DNA of 32,891 bases from a virus. Each line of letters starts with the position of its first letter. Within the stretch, counting starts at the first letter, position 1. Location: positions 1 to 32,891 of IMG/VR virus record IMGVR_UViG_3300046468_001408. One strand, written 5' to 3'. The notes below the pieces were generated by a model. The model was not told where the DNA came from and did no database searches. It worked only from the letters and a program-made list of their open reading frames with translations. Both the position numbers and the translations under genes were made by a program. Shown piece by piece: positions 8 through 12,094 of the stretch.

Positions 8-196
8 ATGTTTGAGTTTAAATTCAAGTTTGATGAACCTGAGTGTGTTACATTTCGGTTTGACGGTTCATTGGACGAATACTTAAACGGTGTATTTCGG
101 TGCAGGTTTGTGACTGGTCGAAGAGGTCCTTTTGGTTGCTCTTTTGGGTGTTTTGATTTGTTATGGGTAAAACATTTAAACACGGAGGGAAAATAA
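8..196 (+). CDS. small hypothetical protein
   Basis: A 62-residue protein that I do not recognise. The N-terminus alternates aromatic and charged residues (FEFKFKFDEPE), as in a beta-strand, and there are three cysteines in the second half. The start lies at the window edge, so a Shine-Dalgarno cannot be judged and the true start might be further left. Its TAA stop shares one base with the ATG of the next gene (TAATG), the usual sign of translational coupling in this phage. The place just before the portal gene fits a small accessory gene between terminase and portal. The chance that it is spurious is real. Confidence 0.45.
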   Translation: MFEFKFKFDEPECVTFRFDGSLDEYLNGVFRCRFVTGRRGPFGCSFGCFDLLWVKHLNTEGK

Positions 197-3065: not shown

Positions 3066-4109
3066 ATGGAAAGCAAAAACTTAGAATATAAAAATCTGTC
3101 GTTTGAAATAAAAGAGTTTAACAATGATGATCCTGATTGTTTTTATTTTGAAGGATATGGATCAACCTTTGGGAATATTGACCGTGGGAACGATGTTGTA
3201 GTTAAAGGGGCATTTGCTGAAAGCTTAAAAGAACAAATGCCTAAGTTGTTGTGGCAACACAAAATGGATATGCCTATAGGTATATTTACAGACGCTTACG
3301 AGGATGCTAAAGGCCTTTACGTTAAAGGAAAGATGCCAAGGGATGATAAATTTGTTTCTGAGCGTGTTATTCCACAAATGAAAGTAGGGTCTATCAATGA
3401 TATGTCTATTGGTTTTTCAATTAAAGATGCTGGCTATGAAAAACACAATGGGGATAGCGTCCGAATGATTAAATCTGTTGATTTGTTTGAGGTTTCGTTG
3501 GTTACTATACCCATGAACCCAGAGGCAGCTATTACAAGTAAGGCATTCACCCCATTCCAAGACAGCTTGTCTATTTACGAAAAAGAGTATACATGGGTAC
3601 CGTCTGAAGCGTTAGAGCGTGTTCAAAAAGAATTGCCAATAGACCAGCAAAAAACGGCGTTCTTATTTTATGACGAGAAAAAACAAGAAGGGGCGTACCA
3701 GATTGCCGATATTGTTGATGGTGAATTACAAATAATTCCTAAAGCGTTGTTTTTGGCTAGTGCAGCGATTAAAGGTCGCAAATCAGTAGATGGTATTGAT
3801 GATATTAGCGTGGCTATTGAGTCAATCAATAAGTATTATGACAAGATCGATGGAGTTGATAGCCCATTGCAAAAAAACATGGTTCAACAGTTTGAGCAAT
3901 TTGGGCATATCAAGGATGCATCTGACTTTTTGAAAGCATACGGATTAAGCAACCAAGAAGCTACTGCGTTTTTAGCCTGTGTTAAAAAAATTCAAGACAA
4001 AAAAGATATTGCCGACAAAATTATTGACGCTGAAAAGAAAGCATCTGAAACTTTGTTGTCAGAAATAAAATCGAGTTTGCAAAATATACAAGAAAAAATA
4101 AAAGATTAA
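3066..4109 (+). CDS. HK97-type prohead serine protease with C-terminal extension
   Basis: This maturation protease (peptidase U35 / S78 fold) cleaves the scaffold or delta domain of the capsid protein and itself. A likely catalytic triad can be read: His65 in LLWQHK, Ser114 in NDMSIGF and Glu142 in LFEVSLV, with spacing like HK97 gp4 (about 65/115/146). The start at 3066 is preferred over 3045 because TGGAGTG lies 4-5 nt upstream. The protein has 347 residues. The protease part takes about 160, and the rest is an extension with an alpha/beta segment (FLFYDEKKQ to NKYYDKI) and a lysine-rich helical tail. Such extensions often act as scaffold; that role is inferred. Confidence 0.9.
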   Translation: MESKNLEYKNLSFEIKEFNNDDPDCFYFEGYGSTFGNIDRGNDVVVKGAFAESLKEQMPKLLWQHKMDMPIGIFTDAYEDAKGLYVKGKMPRDDKFVSERVIPQMKVGSINDMSIGFSIKDAGYEKHNGDSVRMIKSVDLFEVSLVTIPMNPEAAITSKAFTPFQDSLSIYEKEYTWVPSEALERVQKELPIDQQKTAFLFYDEKKQEGAYQIADIVDGELQIIPKALFLASAAIKGRKSVDGIDDISVAIESINKYYDKIDGVDSPLQKNMVQQFEQFGHIKDASDFLKAYGLSNQEATAFLACVKKIQDKKDIADKIIDAEKKASETLLSEIKSSLQNIQEKIKD

Positions 4110-4117
4110 AAACGGGA

Positions 4118-4142
4118 AGGAGTAAAACTATGAAAGTAAAAA
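4118..4142 (+). repeat. 25-bp repeat of a translation start region, copy 1
   Basis: The sequence from AGGAGT through the ATG and the first codons (MKVK) is identical over 25 bp to 6607-6631, in front of the 87-residue gene. The two genes are otherwise unrelated. This suggests that the membrane-protein insert arrived with, or recombined at, a copied ribosome site. Confidence 0.8.
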
Positions 4143-4711
4143 ATATGTCTGATAGTAACGAAAAATCAAAAGAGCTTTTAAGACAAGCTGAATTACGTAT
4201 AAAAGGAATACTTGAATTTTCAAGTGAGCTAGACAACAAAATTTTCAAGCTATTAGCATTAACAACCGCAATATCATCTGTTTTAGTTTTTTTTCTTATA
4301 AATCAGCATAGTACATTTACTAATAAGAATTTATTGTTTTCTTTGATTTTTGCTCTTGGCATTATATCTTTTGCAACATTTTCTTTGTTAATGGCAATTA
4401 AGCCATCTGAATATAAGGGGTTAGGGTTGCCACTGAGTGAATTTGAGGACGAGAAATCACTCGATGAAATAATTCAAAGAGCAAAAGATCGATATGATAC
4501 CCGTTTTAACAGGAACAGGGCTTTGAATGATAAAAAATCTAAGTGGTTAAAAAGCTCTATTACGCTATTAGCTATGATGCCGATTGTAACGGGTGGGTTT
4601 TATCTAACCCTAAAATCCCTTTGTGTCCCAGTTCCCGTCATCGCCGTCTTTTGGGTAATCTTTACATTTTGCGCTCATTTTAGTGCATCAAGGGATAATT
4701 TTGTTATTTAA
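4130..4711 (+). CDS. multi-pass membrane protein, moron (PycTM/SLATT-like topology)
   Basis: A 193-residue protein inserted between protease and capsid genes, which are normally adjacent. It has an N-terminal amphipathic helix (ELLRQAELRIKGILEFSSELDNK), two membrane segments (about 38-58 and 67-90), a charged soluble helix (about 107-140, with RFNRNRALNDKKSKW), then two more hydrophobic segments (about 142-161 and 166-184). A soluble helix, a TM pair and another soluble helix is the layout of the 2TM effectors of bacterial antiphage systems (PycTM, SLATT). I see this as topology and general pattern only, not a proven homology. In a phage it could act in superinfection exclusion. It has a strong ribosome site (AAGGAGTAAAACTATG). 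Confidence 0.85.
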   Translation: MKVKNMSDSNEKSKELLRQAELRIKGILEFSSELDNKIFKLLALTTAISSVLVFFLINQHSTFTNKNLLFSLIFALGIISFATFSLLMAIKPSEYKGLGLPLSEFEDEKSLDEIIQRAKDRYDTRFNRNRALNDKKSKWLKSSITLLAMMPIVTGGFYLTLKSLCVPVPVIAVFWVIFTFCAHFSASRDNFVI

Positions 4712-4734
4712 TTTAAAATATTGGCAAAAAATTA

Positions 4735-4843: not shown

Positions 4844-6079
4844 ATGAGTGTAGAAATGAAAACTACCGAACAGGGAGCTAATGCTGAGCTAAGTGCGGTA
4901 TTAGAAGGGTTGAAAAGCATCGAAGGTGCAACTGGTGAGCAAAAATCTAAGGTTGAAGCCATCTTTTCGGATATTATGCGTTTTGAAGAGAAAAACAAGG
5001 AGTTGACGTTAAGTGCCGCCGAGACCGCTAAGGAATTAAAAGCGGCTCAAGAGCGTTTAGAGACTTTAGAATTATCCGTTTCTCAGAAGTCTATAGGGTC
5101 TTCTGATTATAAAGAGTCTCCGGAGTATAAGGCTTTGAACTTGGCTATGAAAAATGGGTTGTCGTGGGAACAACACTTAAATGCTGAGCAGAAGTCGTTG
5201 TTGCGCACAGACGTTGGTACTAGCGGCGGTTTTTTAGTCCCAGACGCAATTGATGCTAAGATTCGGTCAAAAATCACAGAGGTTAGTGATATTCGGCGAC
5301 TTGCCGATGCTTCAACGGTAACTACTAAAAGCCTTTCTGTAGTGATTGACGGTGAAGCCCCTTATGCACCATTCGAGGGTGAAACAGAGTCGGGGAAACA
5401 AGTTGGGCTTGACGCTGAAGAGGAAACTGTCACCCTATATAGCCAGCGTTCTGTCGTAAAGCTTACGGATGAGCAAATAAATTTTACGCCAACTGATATG
5501 GTTAGCCACATGGAAAAAAAGGTTGTTCGTGGTTTTATAGCTGGTGAAGGCAATGGGTTTTTAAATGGTACAGGAGTCAAAATGCCAAAAGGTGTGTTGA
5601 AGACTGCTAGTGTACCTACATACGAAACTGCTGCAGCTAATAAATTATCGTTTACCGATGTGGTGGATTTAAAGGGCGAGTTAAAAAAGTCTTACCATTC
5701 TAACGCTGTTTATTTCATGAGTCCAAAAACTTACGTTAAATTAAGACTAGAATTAGAAACTGGCGGGAACGGATTGTTTTGGAAGCAAAATAGCGATGGG
5801 CCAAATACGATTGATGGCACGTCTTATGTGCTTATGCCCGACATGGCTGATGTAACAGGGTTGACGGGGCAATCAGCGTTGGCTGCTTCTGGGGACATCG
5901 TTGTTGGGCTTGGTGATTTCTTCACAGGATATCAAATACTAGACCTTGAGGGTACCAAGTTGGTCATAAACCCATACAGCCAAGATTCCGAGGCTATTAT
6001 TAAATACACTTGGAAGCGATGGCTGACTGGCCAAGTGCAAATGCCTGAAGCCTTTGCATTGTTAAAAATCAAAGCTTAA
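4844..6079 (+). CDS. major capsid protein, HK97 fold
   Basis: This is the 411-residue HK97-type shell protein. Residues 1-85 form a charged coiled coil (KNKELTLSAAETAKELKAAQERLETLEL), the delta domain that acts as internal scaffold and is removed by the protease. The mature part probably starts near the SLLRTDVGTSGGFLVP segment, a hallmark of the family. Later landmarks are RRLADAST, the E-loop region with APFEGETESGK, and FLNGTG. The start has a clear ribosome site (CAGGAGTAAAAAATG). It is followed by a strong stem-loop. Neighbours (protease upstream, connectors downstream) agree with this call. Confidence 0.95.
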   Translation: MSVEMKTTEQGANAELSAVLEGLKSIEGATGEQKSKVEAIFSDIMRFEEKNKELTLSAAETAKELKAAQERLETLELSVSQKSIGSSDYKESPEYKALNLAMKNGLSWEQHLNAEQKSLLRTDVGTSGGFLVPDAIDAKIRSKITEVSDIRRLADASTVTTKSLSVVIDGEAPYAPFEGETESGKQVGLDAEEETVTLYSQRSVVKLTDEQINFTPTDMVSHMEKKVVRGFIAGEGNGFLNGTGVKMPKGVLKTASVPTYETAAANKLSFTDVVDLKGELKKSYHSNAVYFMSPKTYVKLRLELETGGNGLFWKQNSDGPNTIDGTSYVLMPDMADVTGLTGQSALAASGDIVVGLGDFFTGYQILDLEGTKLVINPYSQDSEAIIKYTWKRWLTGQVQMPEAFALLKIKA

Positions 6080-7436: not shown

Positions 7437-7803
7437 ATCTGAAATCCCGGTTAAAAGTTTGAACCAAAAAGCCATCGTGCAAACACGGGCTATGGTGGGG
7501 TCTCATTTTGGCGTAACGGATTTAGCCGAGCAGTTTCTTGATTTAAGCGTTTTGTGGGGCAGGTTTGAAACGGATAAAAAAGGCTATCAGTCATTTGGTG
7601 GTGCTGGCATATCAGAATCTATTACTCATGTGTTTACGACACGATATACAAGCGTTATTACAGTTACTGATCAAGAATGGCTGTTGTATGATGGTGTGCG
7701 CTATAAAGTTGATAAGATTGAAAATATCAACGAGGAAAAGAAGTTTTTGCGATTATATTTAATTAGGCAGGGGAGTTCAGAGTTACCGGCTAACGATGGC
7801 TAG
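7426..7803 (+). CDS. head-tail joining protein (gp7 / SPP1 gp16-like)
   Basis: A 125-residue protein that resembles the phage head-tail joining (stopper) family: an N-terminal beta-strand (AIVQTR), a segment with VLWGRFET and FGGAGISESITHVFTTRYTSVITVTDQEWLLYDGVRYKV, and a C-terminal strand with EEKKFLRLYLIRQ. The pattern of W-R-E, H-F-R and a YDG-x-R-Y-x-V strand is characteristic. The start is unsure, because ATG 7417 and TTG 7414 are also in frame and none has a clear ribosome site. The 11-nt overlap with the connector suggests coupling. The 3' end overlaps the next start. Confidence 0.8.
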   Translation: MNCKSEIPVKSLNQKAIVQTRAMVGSHFGVTDLAEQFLDLSVLWGRFETDKKGYQSFGGAGISESITHVFTTRYTSVITVTDQEWLLYDGVRYKVDKIENINEEKKFLRLYLIRQGSSELPANDG

Positions 7804-8224
7804 TATAAAATTAGATCGGAGGGGTAAAAAAACTGTATTTAAAATTAAACAAATGCCAAAAGAGAGCAGGCGAGCAATGCGTCACGCTTTATATTTATCT
7901 GGCAGGCTACTACGTAAAAGTGCTAGTGAATCTATTTTAAAAAAGAAATTCGGGCGTACCTACAGGTATAAAGGTAGAAGGATTAAAGCTAGTCAAGCTG
8001 GCGAAGCATGGGCAAACAGAAGCGGAAAAGCACGAAGGGGATTATCGTTTAGGGTTCAGGGGGGAAACCGTTTGTACTTTGAAAACAGTGTTGATTATGT
8101 GGAATACCTAGAGGATAAAGCATCTTTAAATCGTCCAGCGATGTGGTTGGCAATAGAAAGTAATGCGGATAAGATTTTTAGGAATATAGAGCAGGCAATA
8201 GACAGTGTTTTTGGTATCAAATAA
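7796..8224 (+). CDS. tail completion / neck protein, HK97 gp10-like
   Basis: A 142-residue basic protein. The N-terminal helix (KESRRAMRHALYLSGRLLRKSASESI) followed by a basic loop and the C-terminal segment NRLYFENSVDYVEYLEDKASLNRPAMWLAIE fits the HK97 gp10-like family (tail completion or minor tail protein). The closing motif, a Y-x-x-x-L-E region then R-PAM, is the strongest part. The start is inside the previous gene, whose stop overlaps it by 8 nt. It is the last gene of the head-neck run before the accessory block. Confidence 0.78.
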   Translation: MASIKLDRRGKKTVFKIKQMPKESRRAMRHALYLSGRLLRKSASESILKKKFGRTYRYKGRRIKASQAGEAWANRSGKARRGLSFRVQGGNRLYFENSVDYVEYLEDKASLNRPAMWLAIESNADKIFRNIEQAIDSVFGIK

Positions 8225-8429
8225 ACACGCTTGCTTTTGGGCGTTTTTAGGCATGTTGCTTTTGTTTGGATGCCCAAAATTTATAAGTATATTTATTGCG
8301 TTATTTTTTTTTATTATTATTAATTTCTATCAATTTATAGCAATTTTAGCTATATTGTATGTGGCATCTAGGCTTTTTTTAAAGAAGATGAAAAAACCAG
8401 ATATTCATATTTATTCTATGCTTGACTAA
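8205..8429 (+). CDS. possible small membrane protein
   Basis: A 74-residue frame from GTG 8205, or 58 residues from ATG 8253. It is almost wholly hydrophobic, with two to three possible membrane segments (FWAFLGMLLLFGC, ISIFIALFFFIIINF, FIAILAILYVASRLF) and a positive tail (KKMKKPD). Ribosome sites are weak for both starts. The stop lies inside the -35 of the methyltransferase promoter. Membrane peptides coded by AT-rich DNA can arise by chance, so I keep the confidence modest. If real it could be a holin-like or moron protein. Confidence 0.4.
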   Translation: MFLVSNKHACFWAFLGMLLLFGCPKFISIFIALFFFIIINFYQFIAILAILYVASRLFLKKMKKPDIHIYSMLD

Positions 8430-8450
8430 TTGTTATTGATAATATACAAT
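8422..8450 (+). promoter_or_regulatory. sigma70 promoter, cassette copy A (methyltransferase)
   Basis: TTGACT, 17 bp, TACAAT. The spacing is optimal and each box is one base from the consensus. The cassette continues through an approximately 37-nt leader to AAGGAGTTAAAGG before the ATG at 8488. Nearly the same sequence occurs at 10264 and, more diverged, at 10415. Confidence 0.85.
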
Positions 8451-8487
8451 ACATATAGTTTGATTGTTTAGCATAAGGAGTTAAAGG

Positions 8488-9252
8488 ATGGAATTAAACA
8501 AAATACACAATGAAAATTGCTTTGATACAATGGCAAAGATGAAGGATAACTTTATAGACTTAACGGTAACTTCACCACCTTACGACAACCTCAGAAAATA
8601 CAAAGGTTATTCTTTTGATTTTGAAAGCGTAGCGAAAGAACTTTACAGAACTACAAAAGAAGGCGGTGTAGTTGTTTGGAACGTAAGCGATAGCACAGAC
8701 AAAGGAAGTGAAAGCGGAAGTAGTTTTAAACAAGCGTTATTTTTTATGGAATGCGGTTTTAAATTACATGATACAATGATATGGATAAAAGATGGTGGTG
8801 GTGCAGTAGGTAGCAATAAATGTTACACACAAAACTTTGAATATATGTTTGTTTTTGCAAAAGGCACTATTAATACTTTTAATTTGATTTATGATAAACC
8901 AAATAAATCTTTTGGAAAAGATAAAAGCGGAGTAGGCAGAAGAACAAAAGAAGGAGAGCATAAAATAGAAAAAAGAAAACCATCTAAGGAATTTAGCAGA
9001 AGGAATAACTATTGGTACATAGCACCACAAGCAGGAGAGCATCCAGCGGTGTTCCCTGATAAACTTGCTAGAGACCATATACTTAGTTGGAGTAATGAAG
9101 GTGATTTAATTTACGACCCTTTTATGGGAAGCGGAACAACTGCAAAGATGGCTAAATTAAATAACAGAAATTACATCGGAAGTGAAATATCAAAAGAATA
9201 TTGTGATATAGCAGAGAAGCGATTGGATAACGCTGTTATAACATATAATTAA
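8488..9252 (+). CDS. DNA (N4-cytosine/N6-adenine) methyltransferase, beta class
   Basis: A 254-residue methyltransferase of the N6_N4_Mtase family. The catalytic motif IV is TSPPY (28-32) and precedes the SAM-binding motif I, DPFMGSGTT (210-218), which is the beta-class order. TSPPY is more usual in N4-cytosine enzymes, whereas N6-adenine enzymes mostly have DPPY, so N4mC is the first guess. The target recognition region would be the variable middle (about 120-185). No restriction gene is adjacent, so this is probably an orphan enzyme that protects phage DNA from host restriction. Its own promoter and position mark it as a moron. The start has AAGGAGTTAAAGGATG. Confidence 0.92.
   Translation: MELNKIHNENCFDTMAKMKDNFIDLTVTSPPYDNLRKYKGYSFDFESVAKELYRTTKEGGVVVWNVSDSTDKGSESGSSFKQALFFMECGFKLHDTMIWIKDGGGAVGSNKCYTQNFEYMFVFAKGTINTFNLIYDKPNKSFGKDKSGVGRRTKEGEHKIEKRKPSKEFSRRNNYWYIAPQAGEHPAVFPDKLARDHILSWSNEGDLIYDPFMGSGTTAKMAKLNNRNYIGSEISKEYCDIAEKRLDNAVITYN
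9227..9241 (+). repeat. 15-bp direct repeat flanking accessory genes, left copy
   Basis: ATAACGCTGTTATAA, within the last codons of the methyltransferase gene, is identical to 10956-10970 just before the tail gene at 10988. The core is also an inverted repeat (ATAAC-GCT-GTTAT). Confidence 0.7.
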
Positions 9253-9255
9253 AAA

Positions 9256-9336
9256 ATGGATATGTTCTTGGTTTCTATATTGATTTCTATATTATCAATA
9301 ATAATATCATTTCATAGTTTAGATGTTCTAGGGTGA
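9256..9336 (+). CDS. 26-residue single-span membrane peptide
   Basis: A short frame that starts 3 nt after the methyltransferase stop. It codes for MDMFLVSILISILSIIISFH and six more residues, almost a pure membrane helix with a polar C-terminus (HSLDVLG). The ribosome site is poor (AATTAAAAAATG), so expression would depend on read-on from the methyltransferase gene. It has the same length as the membrane peptide at 10329. It could be a phage microprotein, but a chance frame in AT-rich DNA cannot be excluded. Confidence 0.35.
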   Translation: MDMFLVSILISILSIIISFHSLDVLG

Positions 9337-9361
9337 GAGAAAGGGTGGATAAGTTAAATTC

Positions 9362-10267
9362 ATGAGTTGCGGAAAAGAAAAAAGCCTTTTTGAAATACAA
9401 AAAGATATAGAAAGGATTAAGGGGAATGACCCAGAAAAAACGCTAGATGTTTCACAATCGGTTTTTAAACGGTTAGATATTATTGCAGAGTCTATATTTT
9501 TACCGGATTATATGTTTAATGAATTTGAAGATCATTTTAATTTATTGCAGCTTTTTACAGAATGTTGTGGACACTTGGGAGTTGATTTTATAAAAAGACT
9601 TTGCAGTGCTTTTTGCCAGCCAAAATATACAGAATTGCACAAAGATATCACATATTTGTTTTTAATTAAGTATATTATTGATGACAGACCTTGTTTTATA
9701 AAAGAAAATAAAGTTTGGAAAAGTTTAAGAGTATTTCATGAGAAGAGGATGTTATTTGTGGCTGATTGGTTCATTAGAGAGCATGTTAGTTCTACTGACA
9801 GGGAGTTTAAAAATGGAGTGTCAGCATCACATTTGGAATTAAAATTAGAGGTAAGGAAACATCTTTATAAAATCCGTGTTGGGAAAGCTAAACAGAGGGT
9901 TGATATACATGGGAGTGAATTAAGGTGTCCTTATGATCTTGGATGGTTGATTCAAACACAAAAAAACGAAGGGTTTGTTAAGTTTGGCATTGACGCTGGC
10001 CTTAGTCTTATGGAAAATGAGCTGAAGCCATTTTTAGACGAGGTTAAAGACTGGCATGATATGATTGAAAGCCCCGCTTACGGAAACAATGGGGTTTGTG
10101 TAACAAAATACGATGTTGTCTATGAAGAATATTTTGTTCAAAAATGTCTAGAAATTGTTCGAGAGTGGGATTGGAGCCTTTTTGAAGACTGTCCAGACTT
10201 AAACTTTGGCATGAGTGATATGCCTAATAATCGATACCCTTCAATACCCAGAATTGTTTGGCCTTGA
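9362..10267 (+). CDS. hypothetical protein in accessory block
   Basis: A 301-residue soluble protein that I do not recognise. It is helical and rich in aromatic residues and cysteines (FTECCGHLGVDFIKRLCSAFC, about 62-83), with a basic middle (RKHLYKIRVGKAKQRVDIHGSELR) and a Trp- and Asp-rich end (REWDWSLFEDCPDLNFG). There is no signal peptide and no clear enzyme motif. AAAGGGTGG lies about 12 nt before the ATG. It follows the methyltransferase and membrane peptide, probably on the same transcript, and its TGA stop overlaps the next promoter. Host takeover or anti-defence roles are open guesses. Confidence 0.75.
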   Translation: MSCGKEKSLFEIQKDIERIKGNDPEKTLDVSQSVFKRLDIIAESIFLPDYMFNEFEDHFNLLQLFTECCGHLGVDFIKRLCSAFCQPKYTELHKDITYLFLIKYIIDDRPCFIKENKVWKSLRVFHEKRMLFVADWFIREHVSSTDREFKNGVSASHLELKLEVRKHLYKIRVGKAKQRVDIHGSELRCPYDLGWLIQTQKNEGFVKFGIDAGLSLMENELKPFLDEVKDWHDMIESPAYGNNGVCVTKYDVVYEEYFVQKCLEIVREWDWSLFEDCPDLNFGMSDMPNNRYPSIPRIVWP

Positions 10268-10292
10268 CTAATTGTTATTGATAATATATAAT
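10264..10292 (+). promoter_or_regulatory. sigma70 promoter, cassette copy B (26-residue peptide)
   Basis: TTGACT, 17 bp, TATAAT: only one mismatch to the full consensus. The first 25 bp are identical to copy A at 8421, and the leader and ribosome site (ACACAAGGAGTTAATTATG) match copy C. The -35 includes the stop codon of the upstream gene. Confidence 0.9.
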
Positions 10293-10328
10293 AGATATAG
10301 TTTAATTGTTTAACACAAGGAGTTAATT

Positions 10329-10409
10329 ATGGATTATGGTTATTTTATTTTATTTGCTGCTATTGCACTCGTTGGTTTTCTGATTGTAGAAGCAAGTAAG
10401 TATCATTGA
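10329..10409 (+). CDS. 26-residue membrane microprotein with its own promoter
   Basis: An open frame of 26 codons from ATG 10329 with an excellent ribosome site (AAGGAGTTAATTATG) and its own near-consensus promoter. The peptide is MDYGYFILFAAIALVGFLIV followed by EASKYH: one membrane helix, a short aromatic N-terminus and a short polar C-terminus. A dedicated promoter and Shine-Dalgarno for such a short frame argue that it is truly expressed. Single-span phage microproteins often modulate host membrane enzymes, lysis timing or superinfection. The exact job cannot be read from sequence. The next copy of the cassette begins 6 nt after its stop. Confidence 0.75.
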   Translation: MDYGYFILFAAIALVGFLIVEASKYH

Positions 10410-10414
10410 ATGGC

Positions 10415-10443
10415 TTGAATAGTTTTTATTAGCGTGATACGCT
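10415..10443 (+). promoter_or_regulatory. sigma70 promoter, cassette copy C, with operator-like inverted repeat
   Basis: TTGAAT, 17 bp, TACGCT. The -10 is weak, but the spacing and the whole downstream leader match copies A and B. AGCGT-GAT-ACGCT (10431-10443) is a perfect 5-bp inverted repeat over the -10, which looks like a repressor site that is absent from A and B. Confidence 0.7.
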
Positions 10444-10479
10444 AGCTATAGTTTGATTGCTTAACACAAGGAGTTAATT

Positions 10480-10956
10480 ATGTATGCTTATTTTTATATT
10501 GATAAAGATGATAATTTGGTAGAATGTGATCGTGATACTTATAAAAAATGGGAGTTCTCGCTTAATACCACACGGAAACCTTTGTTTTTTTATATAAAGG
10601 ACAGGAATGTTTGTGTTGAATGTCCTGTGCTTGAGTTATATGGCAGTTTGATCGATAAGTATGGTGATGGGTTTGTTGTGCGGGAATCTGAATTTTCAGT
10701 ACAAGAAAAACACTACACTATACTGACTGAGATATATGAAACCTATTGTGTTGAAGATGATGATGATAGCCATAGGGGATTTTATGGTTATTACCCAGCA
10801 TTTTCAACAATTGTTAGATGTCTTTCTAATGGGGATTTTGTTGGGAAGGCGTTTAAGCTCACAGATTGCCCAAATTATGGGCTAGAAAAGGCAATAGAGT
10901 ATCACGAGTCTATTATTTTGGACATTGTTTCTGGGAAGGATCTGAAATATATATAA
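10480..10956 (+). CDS. hypothetical acidic protein in accessory block
   Basis: A 158-residue acidic protein of unknown family. It begins with a beta-strand pair (MYAYFYIDKDDNLVECD), has several cysteines, and carries an acidic cluster EDDDDSH in the middle followed by an aromatic run (RGFYGYYPAF). The C-terminus is helical. It has its own promoter copy C and the ribosome site AAGGAGTTAATTATG. Small acidic phage proteins with their own promoters include DNA mimics and anti-restriction factors; this is a possibility only. Its stop is followed directly by the 15-bp repeat and the promoter of the next tail gene. Confidence 0.8.
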   Translation: MYAYFYIDKDDNLVECDRDTYKKWEFSLNTTRKPLFFYIKDRNVCVECPVLELYGSLIDKYGDGFVVRESEFSVQEKHYTILTEIYETYCVEDDDDSHRGFYGYYPAFSTIVRCLSNGDFVGKAFKLTDCPNYGLEKAIEYHESIILDIVSGKDLKYI

Positions 10957-10987: not shown

Positions 10988-12094
10988 ATGAACCTAAGTG
11001 AATTAGTCACTCATGTGCAAAGCATACTGCCCTTATACAACAATAGTCTTAGCGTATCCAAGCCAATAACAGATTTAACGAAATCCGGCAATGATGTTAC
11101 GGTTTCGTGTATACAACACGGATTATCAGTTGGCGACAATGTGTTGCTATCTGGTGTAAAGACAGTTGTCCAAATAACAGATATAACTACTGTAAACGGA
11201 GTCGCTACTGCTACTTGCGCTACAGATCACGACTTATCATACCCGTATATAAATAAAGTCAATATGTCATCAACAATAAGTGAATACAATGGTGACAAGA
11301 GAATTACAAGCGTGCCAAGCTCAACTACATTTACGTTTAATGTCACAGGATCGCCAGCGCAAGGAACAGGAACATTGCACACCTTCCATTCTATTGGATT
11401 TAATGGCTGGCATGAAATCACAGCGGTTTTAGACGCAAATAAATTTCAATTTACCTTTAATAATGATCGATTGACAGCTGGCTCTGGCTCTGACATGAAA
11501 CTTGTGACAGGGTTGCAGATTTCAGCAGTGGCAACGCTTGAACGAGCTATAAAATTGTATACAGATAAGAAAATCAATACACCGTTTTTATTTGTTGTTC
11601 CAGAAGGGTCTGATGCATCAGCAGACAGGAACACCCAGAATGATGCAAATAGCGAGACAACGTCAACGGAGCAATTTTATTTAAAGTTGGTAAATAATTT
11701 TTCGTTTTATTTATTTGTTCCAACAGTTAATGAGTTGACAGGTAGTAAGGCTATAGATTTGGCGTTTAACATTTTACCGTCATTGTATAAAACTGTCGCT
11801 GGGTATCGACCAAGCACATTTTTTCAAAACACAAGCAACACGCTAATGGTTCCATTGGGTCATTGGGCAATTAGTTATAACGATGCGTATCTTGTTTATT
11901 CATACAGTTTTGAAACAACTGAAACTATATTAAGCACGCAAACAGCAAATTATTCGCAGGATACAAGCCAGTTTATGTATAATTCTGGGGATACATACAC
12001 AAATACTGAAACTGTAGCATTTAGGAGTTTTGAGAATGCATTCCAAAATGACAATTCCGAAAATGTAAAAGATAATAATTTTAATTTGTTGTGA
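10988..12094 (+). CDS. tail protein at the Mu gp37 position, with nested beta-domain insert
   Basis: A 368-residue protein directly before the gp38/DUF2635 gene, where Mu has gp37, so a tail terminator or completion role is likely. Residues 1-28 and about 160-330 would be the conserved part (AVATLERAIKLYTDKK, TPFLFVVPEG, GYRPSTFFQNTSNTLMVPLGHWAISYND). Residues 29-157 are an insert of small beta domains of the HGL/GD/SG/YNG/FTF type. One copy (about 65-130) seems to be inserted inside another (29-60 plus 136-157). The tail is rich in Asn, Ser and Thr. The gene lacks a Shine-Dalgarno. Confidence 0.7.
   Translation: MNLSELVTHVQSILPLYNNSLSVSKPITDLTKSGNDVTVSCIQHGLSVGDNVLLSGVKTVVQITDITTVNGVATATCATDHDLSYPYINKVNMSSTISEYNGDKRITSVPSSTTFTFNVTGSPAQGTGTLHTFHSIGFNGWHEITAVLDANKFQFTFNNDRLTAGSGSDMKLVTGLQISAVATLERAIKLYTDKKINTPFLFVVPEGSDASADRNTQNDANSETTSTEQFYLKLVNNFSFYLFVPTVNELTGSKAIDLAFNILPSLYKTVAGYRPSTFFQNTSNTLMVPLGHWAISYNDAYLVYSYSFETTETILSTQTANYSQDTSQFMYNSGDTYTNTETVAFRSFENAFQNDNSENVKDNNFNLL

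What the first reader, a model, noticed from the sequence alone, without database searches (positions are those of the whole stretch)
8421..10482. Three copies of one promoter-leader-RBS cassette drive separate accessory genes
Copies A (8421-8487), B (10263-10328) and C (10414-10479) each have a -35, exactly 17 bp, a -10, then a conserved leader and AAGGAG before the ATG. A and B are identical for 25 bp across the -35 and spacer. They precede a methyltransferase, a 26-residue membrane peptide and an acidic unknown. Each looks like an autonomous moron unit, and the duplication of the control cassette suggests growth of this island by copying it.
Basis: seen in the sequence. Interest (0 to 1): 0.68.

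Follow-up and report, generated by a model that had tools for sequence, protein, structure and literature searches.

The report
Shuffled early-promoter cassettes in phage genomes
Three near-copies of one promoter-and-leader sequence in this phage belong to a control cassette that recurs throughout a family of uncultured phages, in front of both its replication genes and an exchangeable set of accessory genes, and it appears to be a preferred join where accessory genes are swapped.

Summary
The three cassettes are real; none is expected by chance. A and B have good sigma-70 promoters and share 26 identical bp. Copy C keeps the leader and ribosome site, but its promoter is decayed (TTGAAT-17-TACGCT). 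They sit in an accessory island between a neck gene and a tail-proximal gene that overlap, with no island, in a distant relative. Related uncultured phages carry the cassette before many genes: several island genes, small membrane proteins, DUF4116 proteins, and early genes (replication initiation, Erf annealing protein, YqaJ nuclease, SSB). The invariant part is AGTTTGATTGTTT, 6 or 8 nt after the -10, at the predicted transcription start. It is 93% identical between lineages whose promoter spacers are 41% identical. The best promoters of the operon leading to the portal gene lack it. Homology breakpoints fall in the leader/RBS, one relative is an A-promoter/C-leader hybrid, and B is an A-type cassette in a new place. 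So copying and exchange are supported. "Autonomous moron expressed in lysogens" is only partly supported: no terminators, lysogeny unproven, promoter class of early genes. Best reading: a phage-wide early promoter plus start-site element, adopted by accessory genes and spread by homologous recombination. Closest known kinds: T4 PeSLs, mycobacteriophage Start-Associated Sequences.

The parts
8421..8487 (+). Cassette A: -35 TTGACT 8422-8427, 17-bp spacer, -10 TACAAT 8445-8450, core TATAGTTTGATTGTTTA 8454-8470, SD AAGGAG 8475-8480; the stop codon of the upstream ORF (8205-8429) lies inside it
   Evidence: homology with relatives L033, L038, L060 and L041 ends at 8482-8483, at the RBS
10263..10328 (+). 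Cassette B: -35 TTGACT 10264-10269, -10 TATAAT 10287-10292, core TATAGTTTAATTGTTTA 10296-10312, SD 10317-10322; the stop codon of ORF 9362-10267 lies in the -35 box
   Evidence: 1 of 49 positions different from the site-A cassette of L009
10414..10479 (+). Cassette C: decayed promoter (TTGAAT 10415-10420, TACGCT 10438-10443), intact core TATAGTTTGATTGCTTA 10447-10463, SD 10468-10473
   Evidence: intact orthologues in L009 and L060
8488..9252 (+). DNA N6/N4 methyltransferase behind cassette A; not found at this site in the relatives compared
   Evidence: Pfam PF01555 5.6e-45; PADLOC orphan methyltransferase 1.8e-94; relatives in other phages lack the cassette
9362..10267 (+). 301-aa accessory protein of unknown function (MSCGKE family), without its own cassette; also in L033 and L060
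   Evidence: no Pfam, PHROG or PADLOC hit
10329..10409 (+). 26-aa hydrophobic ORF behind cassette B
   Evidence: not shown to be translated
10480..10956 (+). 158-aa acidic protein (MYAYF family), the most constant gene of the island, 69-92% identical in relatives
8205..8429 (+). Small membrane-protein ORF that ends inside cassette A; aligned with the 88-aa ORFs of relatives
7796..8224 (+). Left flank of the island: neck/tail-completion protein
   Evidence: PHROG 5, 3.4e-05; overlaps the right-flank gene directly in L037
10988..12094 (+). Right flank of the island: conserved gene upstream of the tail sheath gene

Best explanation
The cassette is this phage family's early-type transcription unit head. 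It consists of a near-consensus sigma-70 promoter with a 17-bp spacer, a conserved start-site element (AGTTTGATTGTTT, beginning at the predicted +1) and a strong Shine-Dalgarno site. It drives the early replication and recombination genes. Accessory genes lodged in the late region have adopted it, which should make them expressed early and independently of the late operon. The cassette has been copied within genomes. Because its copies are short blocks of near-identical DNA at gene starts, they act as places where homologous recombination, probably by the phage-encoded Erf annealing protein and YqaJ nuclease, replaces the gene behind the promoter. Shown here: the sequences, their distribution, the gene contexts, the breakpoints and the hybrid cassettes. 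Inferred: promoter activity, early timing, recombination by Erf/YqaJ, and the role of the start-site element, which I think is most likely a recognition site for a phage regulator acting at the start site, less likely a purely translational leader.
For: Promoter-first scan: 21 of 24 distinct TTGAC/-10/SD/start sites in these phages carry the core with 0-2 mismatches. Site-first scan: of 22 distinct exact AGTTTGATTGTTT sites, 21 have a promoter of at least 9/12 just upstream and all have an SD; among promoters of at least 9/12 the element starts 6 or 8 nt after the -10 in 36 of 39 sites. Core 93% identical between the island and late-region classes, promoter spacer 41%. Cassettes precede small ORF + Erf (PF04404 3.3e-39), small ORF + SSB (PF00436 2e-21), YqaJ nuclease (PF09588 2.5e-26), ParB-like genes, the replication-initiation operon (PHROG 270, 4e-21; variant core) and a leftward 95-aa gene. 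L062, one of these early-region contigs, shares a tail-fibre gene with the window, 72% identical. The top-scoring promoters of the operon leading to the portal gene (four 12/12 sites in L014, L018, L021, L060) lack the core. Exchange: relatives' homology ends at window 8482-8483, at the RBS of A; L029 matches C only from 10447, the first base of the core, and has an A-like promoter upstream; L033 and L041 start at 10452, L005 at 10470. B differs by 1 of 49 positions from L009's site-A cassette and carries the TGATAATATA variant that in the island class is seen otherwise only in A. The same promoter drives MTKQEI in L033 and MYAYF in L009 and L060.
Against: No expression data. The window itself lacks the early region; the early-region contigs are separate uncultured contigs of the same family. 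Some loci were fetched by the core motif itself, which inflates its apparent conservation; the promoter-first scan and the gene-fetched loci reduce but do not remove this. The breakpoints are few, and phylogenetic dependence reduces the independent events to about four. Cassette C is decayed, so the third unit may not work alone. A 12/12 promoter in the window (minus strand, 27771) lacks a good core (4 mismatches).
Confidence: 0.66

Rival explanations
1. Moron model: autonomous cassettes expressed from the prophage, independent of all phage regulation.
For: Own sigma-70 promoters, island absent in relative L037, lower G+C.
Against: No terminators; the same cassette drives replication and recombination genes, which should be silent in a lysogen; lysogeny of these phages not shown.
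Confidence: 0.2
2. Translational leader: the conserved 5' UTR (U-rich, unstructured, before a strong SD) is kept for efficient ribosome loading, like the Start-Associated Sequences of cluster K mycobacteriophages or the T7 gene 10 leader (the latter from memory), and has no regulator.
For: The element lies in the predicted 5' UTR shortly before the SD; part of the leader persists in L004 and L034 where the promoter is lost; no consistent RNA structure.
Against: Exact base identity rather than mere U-richness; the conserved part is next to the start site while the part next to the SD varies; it also occurs once without promoter or SD in the early control region (L118:3208, L119:1228).
Confidence: 0.3
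3. The element is an operator for a phage repressor or activator, like the asymmetric, transcription-oriented operators/stoperators of cluster A mycobacteriophages, so that accessory genes are co-regulated with early genes. (This is the version of the best explanation that I favour for the element itself.)
For: Fixed place at the start site with 6 or 8 nt spacing; asymmetric and oriented; present at the promoter of a leftward gene beside a small HTH-like ORF and once without a promoter in that region.
Against: No regulator identified; the HTH match is below Pfam's cut-off; no conserved dyad in the spacer.
Confidence: 0.4
4. Site-specific, integron-like insertion of genes at the core by a recombinase.
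For: Some genes are flanked by the core on both sides (MTKQEI in L033, the 26-aa ORF here), and breakpoints lie in or just after the core.
Against: No recombinase gene found beside the island; whole promoters are copied too; breakpoints spread over about 35 bp; Erf-type homologous recombination suffices.
Confidence: 0.04
5. Chance or convergent similarity of AT-rich promoters.
For: A+T-rich genome with many promoter-like matches (36 found, 24 expected).
Against: 0 of 100 shuffles reach even one leader match; recurrence before different genes in many contigs.
Confidence: 0.005

Closest known systems
PeSLs of T4-type phages (Arbiol et al. 2010, doi 10.1093/gbe/evq006; Comeau et al. 2014, doi 10.1093/gbe/evu129; titles seen in the reference lists of PMC4177764, PMC4503421 and PMC5931544; full texts not held, description partly from memory)
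   Same: Repeated promoter cassettes in accessory regions that mediate modular shuffling of genes.
   Different: No stem-loop terminator here; the conserved part is a start-site leader; an unrelated phage family.
Start-Associated Sequences (SAS/ESAS) of cluster K mycobacteriophages (PMC3203893)
   Same: A short asymmetric conserved sequence just upstream of many gene starts of different families, across related phages, function unknown.
   Different: Different sequence; here it is tied to a consensus sigma-70 promoter and lies at the predicted transcription start; no long inverted repeats.
Morons (Juhala et al. 2000; Cumby et al. 2012; use of the term in PMC7067206)
   Same: Extra genes with their own promoter between genes that adjoin in a relative; deviant base composition.
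   Different: No terminators; promoter class shared with replication genes; lysogen expression not shown.
Intergenic promoter repeats of halovirus HF2 (PMC8707807)
   Same: Near-identical intergenic repeats that carry promoters, conserved across a virus genus.
   Different: Archaeal promoters; no role as gene-exchange joints is stated in the abstract (only abstract and outline read).
Operators/stoperators of cluster A mycobacteriophages (PMC9283540)
   Same: Asymmetric short sites throughout the genome, oriented with transcription, including at promoters.
   Different: No repressor known here; the sites are almost all at promoter starts, not in promoterless gaps.

Membership tests
Moron | Gene inserted between genes that are adjacent in a relative | tested here: met
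   In L037 the two flanking genes overlap by 4 bp with no island
Moron | Own sigma-70-type promoter | tested here: met
   A 10/12 and B 11/12; C fails at 7/12
Moron | Own factor-independent terminator | tested here: not met
   No credible terminator after any island gene in the window or in L033
Moron | Different base composition | tested here: met
   25-34% G+C against 37-43% in nearby genes
Moron | Expressed in the lysogen | not testable with these tools
   No expression data; lysogeny not shown
T4 PeSL | Promoter of the early class, repeated before different genes | tested here: inconclusive
   Shared with replication/recombination genes; timing itself not measured
T4 PeSL | Associated stem-loop terminator | tested here: not met
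T4 PeSL | Gene exchange at the cassette | tested here: met
   Breakpoints and hybrid cassette
Start-Associated Sequence of cluster K | GGGATAGGAGCCC consensus | tested here: not met
   The element is AGTTTGATTGTTT
Start-Associated Sequence (as a kind) | Conserved asymmetric sequence just upstream of starts of unrelated genes | tested here: met
Repressor operator/stoperator | Bound by a phage repressor | not testable with these tools
   No regulator identified; weak HTH candidate only

The most novel reading that the evidence does not exclude
A previously undescribed start-site element (AGTTTGATTGTTT at +1) is read by a phage-encoded regulator, DNA- or RNA-binding, and places all early genes and all cassette-borne accessory genes in one regulon; acquiring the cassette is how a new gene joins that regulon and becomes exchangeable.
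Probability: 0.35. Interest if true: 0.68.

Novelty: new variant of a known kind. Interest (0 to 1): 0.52.

Why it matters
How phages attach newly acquired genes to a working control signal, and why some gene joints are exchange points, is mostly inferred from T4-type and lambdoid phages. Here one standard promoter-plus-leader is seen before early genes and before a changing set of accessory genes at several sites, with intermediates: intact, hybrid, half-lost and decayed cassettes. This makes promoter capture and exchange directly testable. The conserved start-site element is also a simple tag for finding accessory genes in this phage family.

Tried and rejected
A dyad operator in the -35/-10 spacer: attractive in single sequences, but not better than column-permuted controls overall (P 0.77) or in the island class (P 0.82); it stood out only in the 4-sequence early-region class, P 0.003. 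Conserved RNA structure of the leader: no consistent fold (z -2.4, +1.8, -0.7, -0.1) and no Rfam match. The methyltransferase carrying the cassette with it from elsewhere: among 52 viral relatives none has a convincing cassette in front of it. The 26-aa ORF 10329-10409 as a remnant of the MDL protein family: no DNA similarity above shuffles; ORF 9256-9336 is only suggestive. IHF site or T7 gene 10 leader: partial resemblance noted by eye, not tested. First genome scan with the leader pattern: no bacterial genome hits. Island genes MYAYF and MSCGKE against GenBank phages: no match.

Full report
Observation. The window is a 32.9-kb uncultured tailed-phage contig (virus record) with a portal protein, a neck-type protein and a contractile-tail sheath. 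The leader pattern occurs three times, against none in 100 shuffles. A and B share 26 identical bp and have good sigma-70 matches. C has the leader and SD but a decayed promoter (7/12).

Island. The three cassettes lie between gene 7796-8224 and gene 10988-12094. In a distant relative (L037; 47% identical in the left gene) these two genes overlap with nothing between them. In closer relatives the interval holds different sets of genes. L029: cassette-MYAYF only. L009: membrane ORF, cassette-MDL, cassette-MYAYF. L005: membrane ORF, cassette-MTKQEI, MYAYF. L060: membrane ORF, cassette-MDL, MSCGKE, cassette-MYAYF, another methyltransferase. L033: membrane ORF, cassette-MDL, MSCGKE, cassette-MTKQEI, half leader-MYAYF. 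L038 and L041: similar with deletion scars. Window: membrane ORF, cassette A-methyltransferase, 26-aa ORF, MSCGKE, cassette B-26-aa ORF, cassette C-MYAYF. In several cases the stop codon of the upstream ORF lies inside the cassette.

Distribution. Pattern scans and gene-based fetches of IMG/VR relatives gave cassettes before at least 15 gene families. Besides the island genes, these are small membrane proteins (MDFE), MSENAF, and DUF4116 repeat proteins (PF13475). In the early region they are small ORF + Erf, small ORF + SSB, a YqaJ nuclease, ParB-like genes, the replication-initiation operon with a variant core, and a leftward 95-aa gene. One such contig, L062/L118, carries the window's tail-fibre gene (72% identical) and reaches the early genes within about 1.3 kb, so the early region probably lies just beyond the right end of this window. 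L011, 99.7% identical to the window over 3.4 kb, shows a further cassette about 714 bp beyond the left end, before a DUF4116 gene whose tail is at window 8-196.

Control against circularity. Starting from promoters and not from the core, 21 of 24 distinct strong promoters with SD and start codon carry the core with 0-2 mismatches. Starting from AGTTTGATTGTTT, 21 of 22 distinct exact sites have a promoter of at least 9/12 just upstream, and the element begins 6 or 8 nt after the -10. Exact AGTTTGATTG is otherwise nearly absent: about 0.04 expected per 10 kb, one promoterless site conserved in L118 and L119. The best promoters of the operon leading to the portal gene are perfect matches but lack it. 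It is therefore a mark of a promoter class, not of every promoter.

Conservation. The 17-bp promoter spacer is 41-43% identical between the late-region class and the other two classes (70% between the island and early-region classes), while the core is 88-93% identical in all comparisons. Ascertainment by the core inflates the latter figure for some loci.

Exchange and copying. BLAST blocks between the window and relatives end or begin in the cassettes: 8482-8483 (RBS of A; L033, L038, L041, L060), 8470 (L009), 10447 (first base of the core of C; L029), 10452 (L033, L041) and 10470 (L005). L029 has an A-like promoter joined to a C-like leader and gene, so it is a hybrid. B sits where relatives have the C-type promoter or nothing, yet differs by only 1 of 49 positions from L009's site-A cassette and has the TGATAATATA variant that in the island class is found otherwise only in A, so it is a copy of an A-type cassette. 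The same C-type promoter serves MYAYF in L009 and L060 but MTKQEI in L033. The family encodes an Erf-type annealing protein and a YqaJ nuclease. [quoted passage not shown] That they act here is inference.

Mechanism. Most likely the cassette is an early-class promoter with a start-site element, taken over by accessory genes. Whether the element acts on transcription (operator) or on the mRNA (leader) is open. Its tight place at the start site, its exactness, its presence on the leftward promoter and at one promoterless control-region site lean to an operator; its place in the 5' UTR before a strong SD keeps the leader view alive. The spacer-dyad idea failed.

Host. One bacterial genome hit: a 17.5-kb contig in a Legionellaceae MAG (L060). 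No host genes were recognised in the 14.7 kb read, so the host link is weak. Lysogeny is not shown.

Known kinds. It works like T4 PeSLs (exchangeable promoter cassettes) but lacks their stem-loop. It resembles cluster K Start-Associated Sequences (PMC3203893) but has another sequence and is promoter-linked. It meets three of the moron criteria and fails the terminator one. I file it as a new variant of a known kind.

Noticed in passing
window 4130-4711 (+): A 193-aa ORF with hydrophobic, membrane-like segments interrupts the protease-capsid region; all compared relatives that span it break homology at about 4097-4728. Weak PADLOC PycTM match (0.003). A second accessory insertion, without the cassette.
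   Followed up: partly
window 5139-5886 (+): Homology to most relatives breaks inside the capsid gene, as if the central part of the capsid protein had been exchanged.
   Followed up: no
window 25517-26020 (-): ImmA/IrrE-like (capP-like) peptidase gene; a close relative sits in a different place in L014 (6655-7158), so it moves between sites.
   Followed up: partly
window 27771-27743 (-): Perfect 12/12 sigma-70 promoter (TTGACA-17-TATAAT) on the minus strand without a good copy of the core (4 mismatches).
   Followed up: partly
window 8-196 (+): Tail of a DUF4116-family gene cut by the window's left end; L011 shows the whole gene with its own cassette.
   Followed up: yes
L118:3208 and L119:1228: Core element without promoter or SD, followed by a conserved inverted repeat around CTAG, between a small HTH-like ORF and the replication operon.
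   Followed up: partly
L014:1-1915, L013:610-2610, L117:6592-9501: Tandem arrays of DUF4116 repeat genes just upstream of the terminase gene, variable between relatives.
   Followed up: no
window 10429-10445: A 7-bp inverted repeat (TTAGCGTGATACGCTAG) has replaced part of the spacer and -10 of cassette C.
   Followed up: partly
L060:12313-13074: A different DNA methyltransferase lies in the same island after MYAYF, without a cassette.
   Followed up: no
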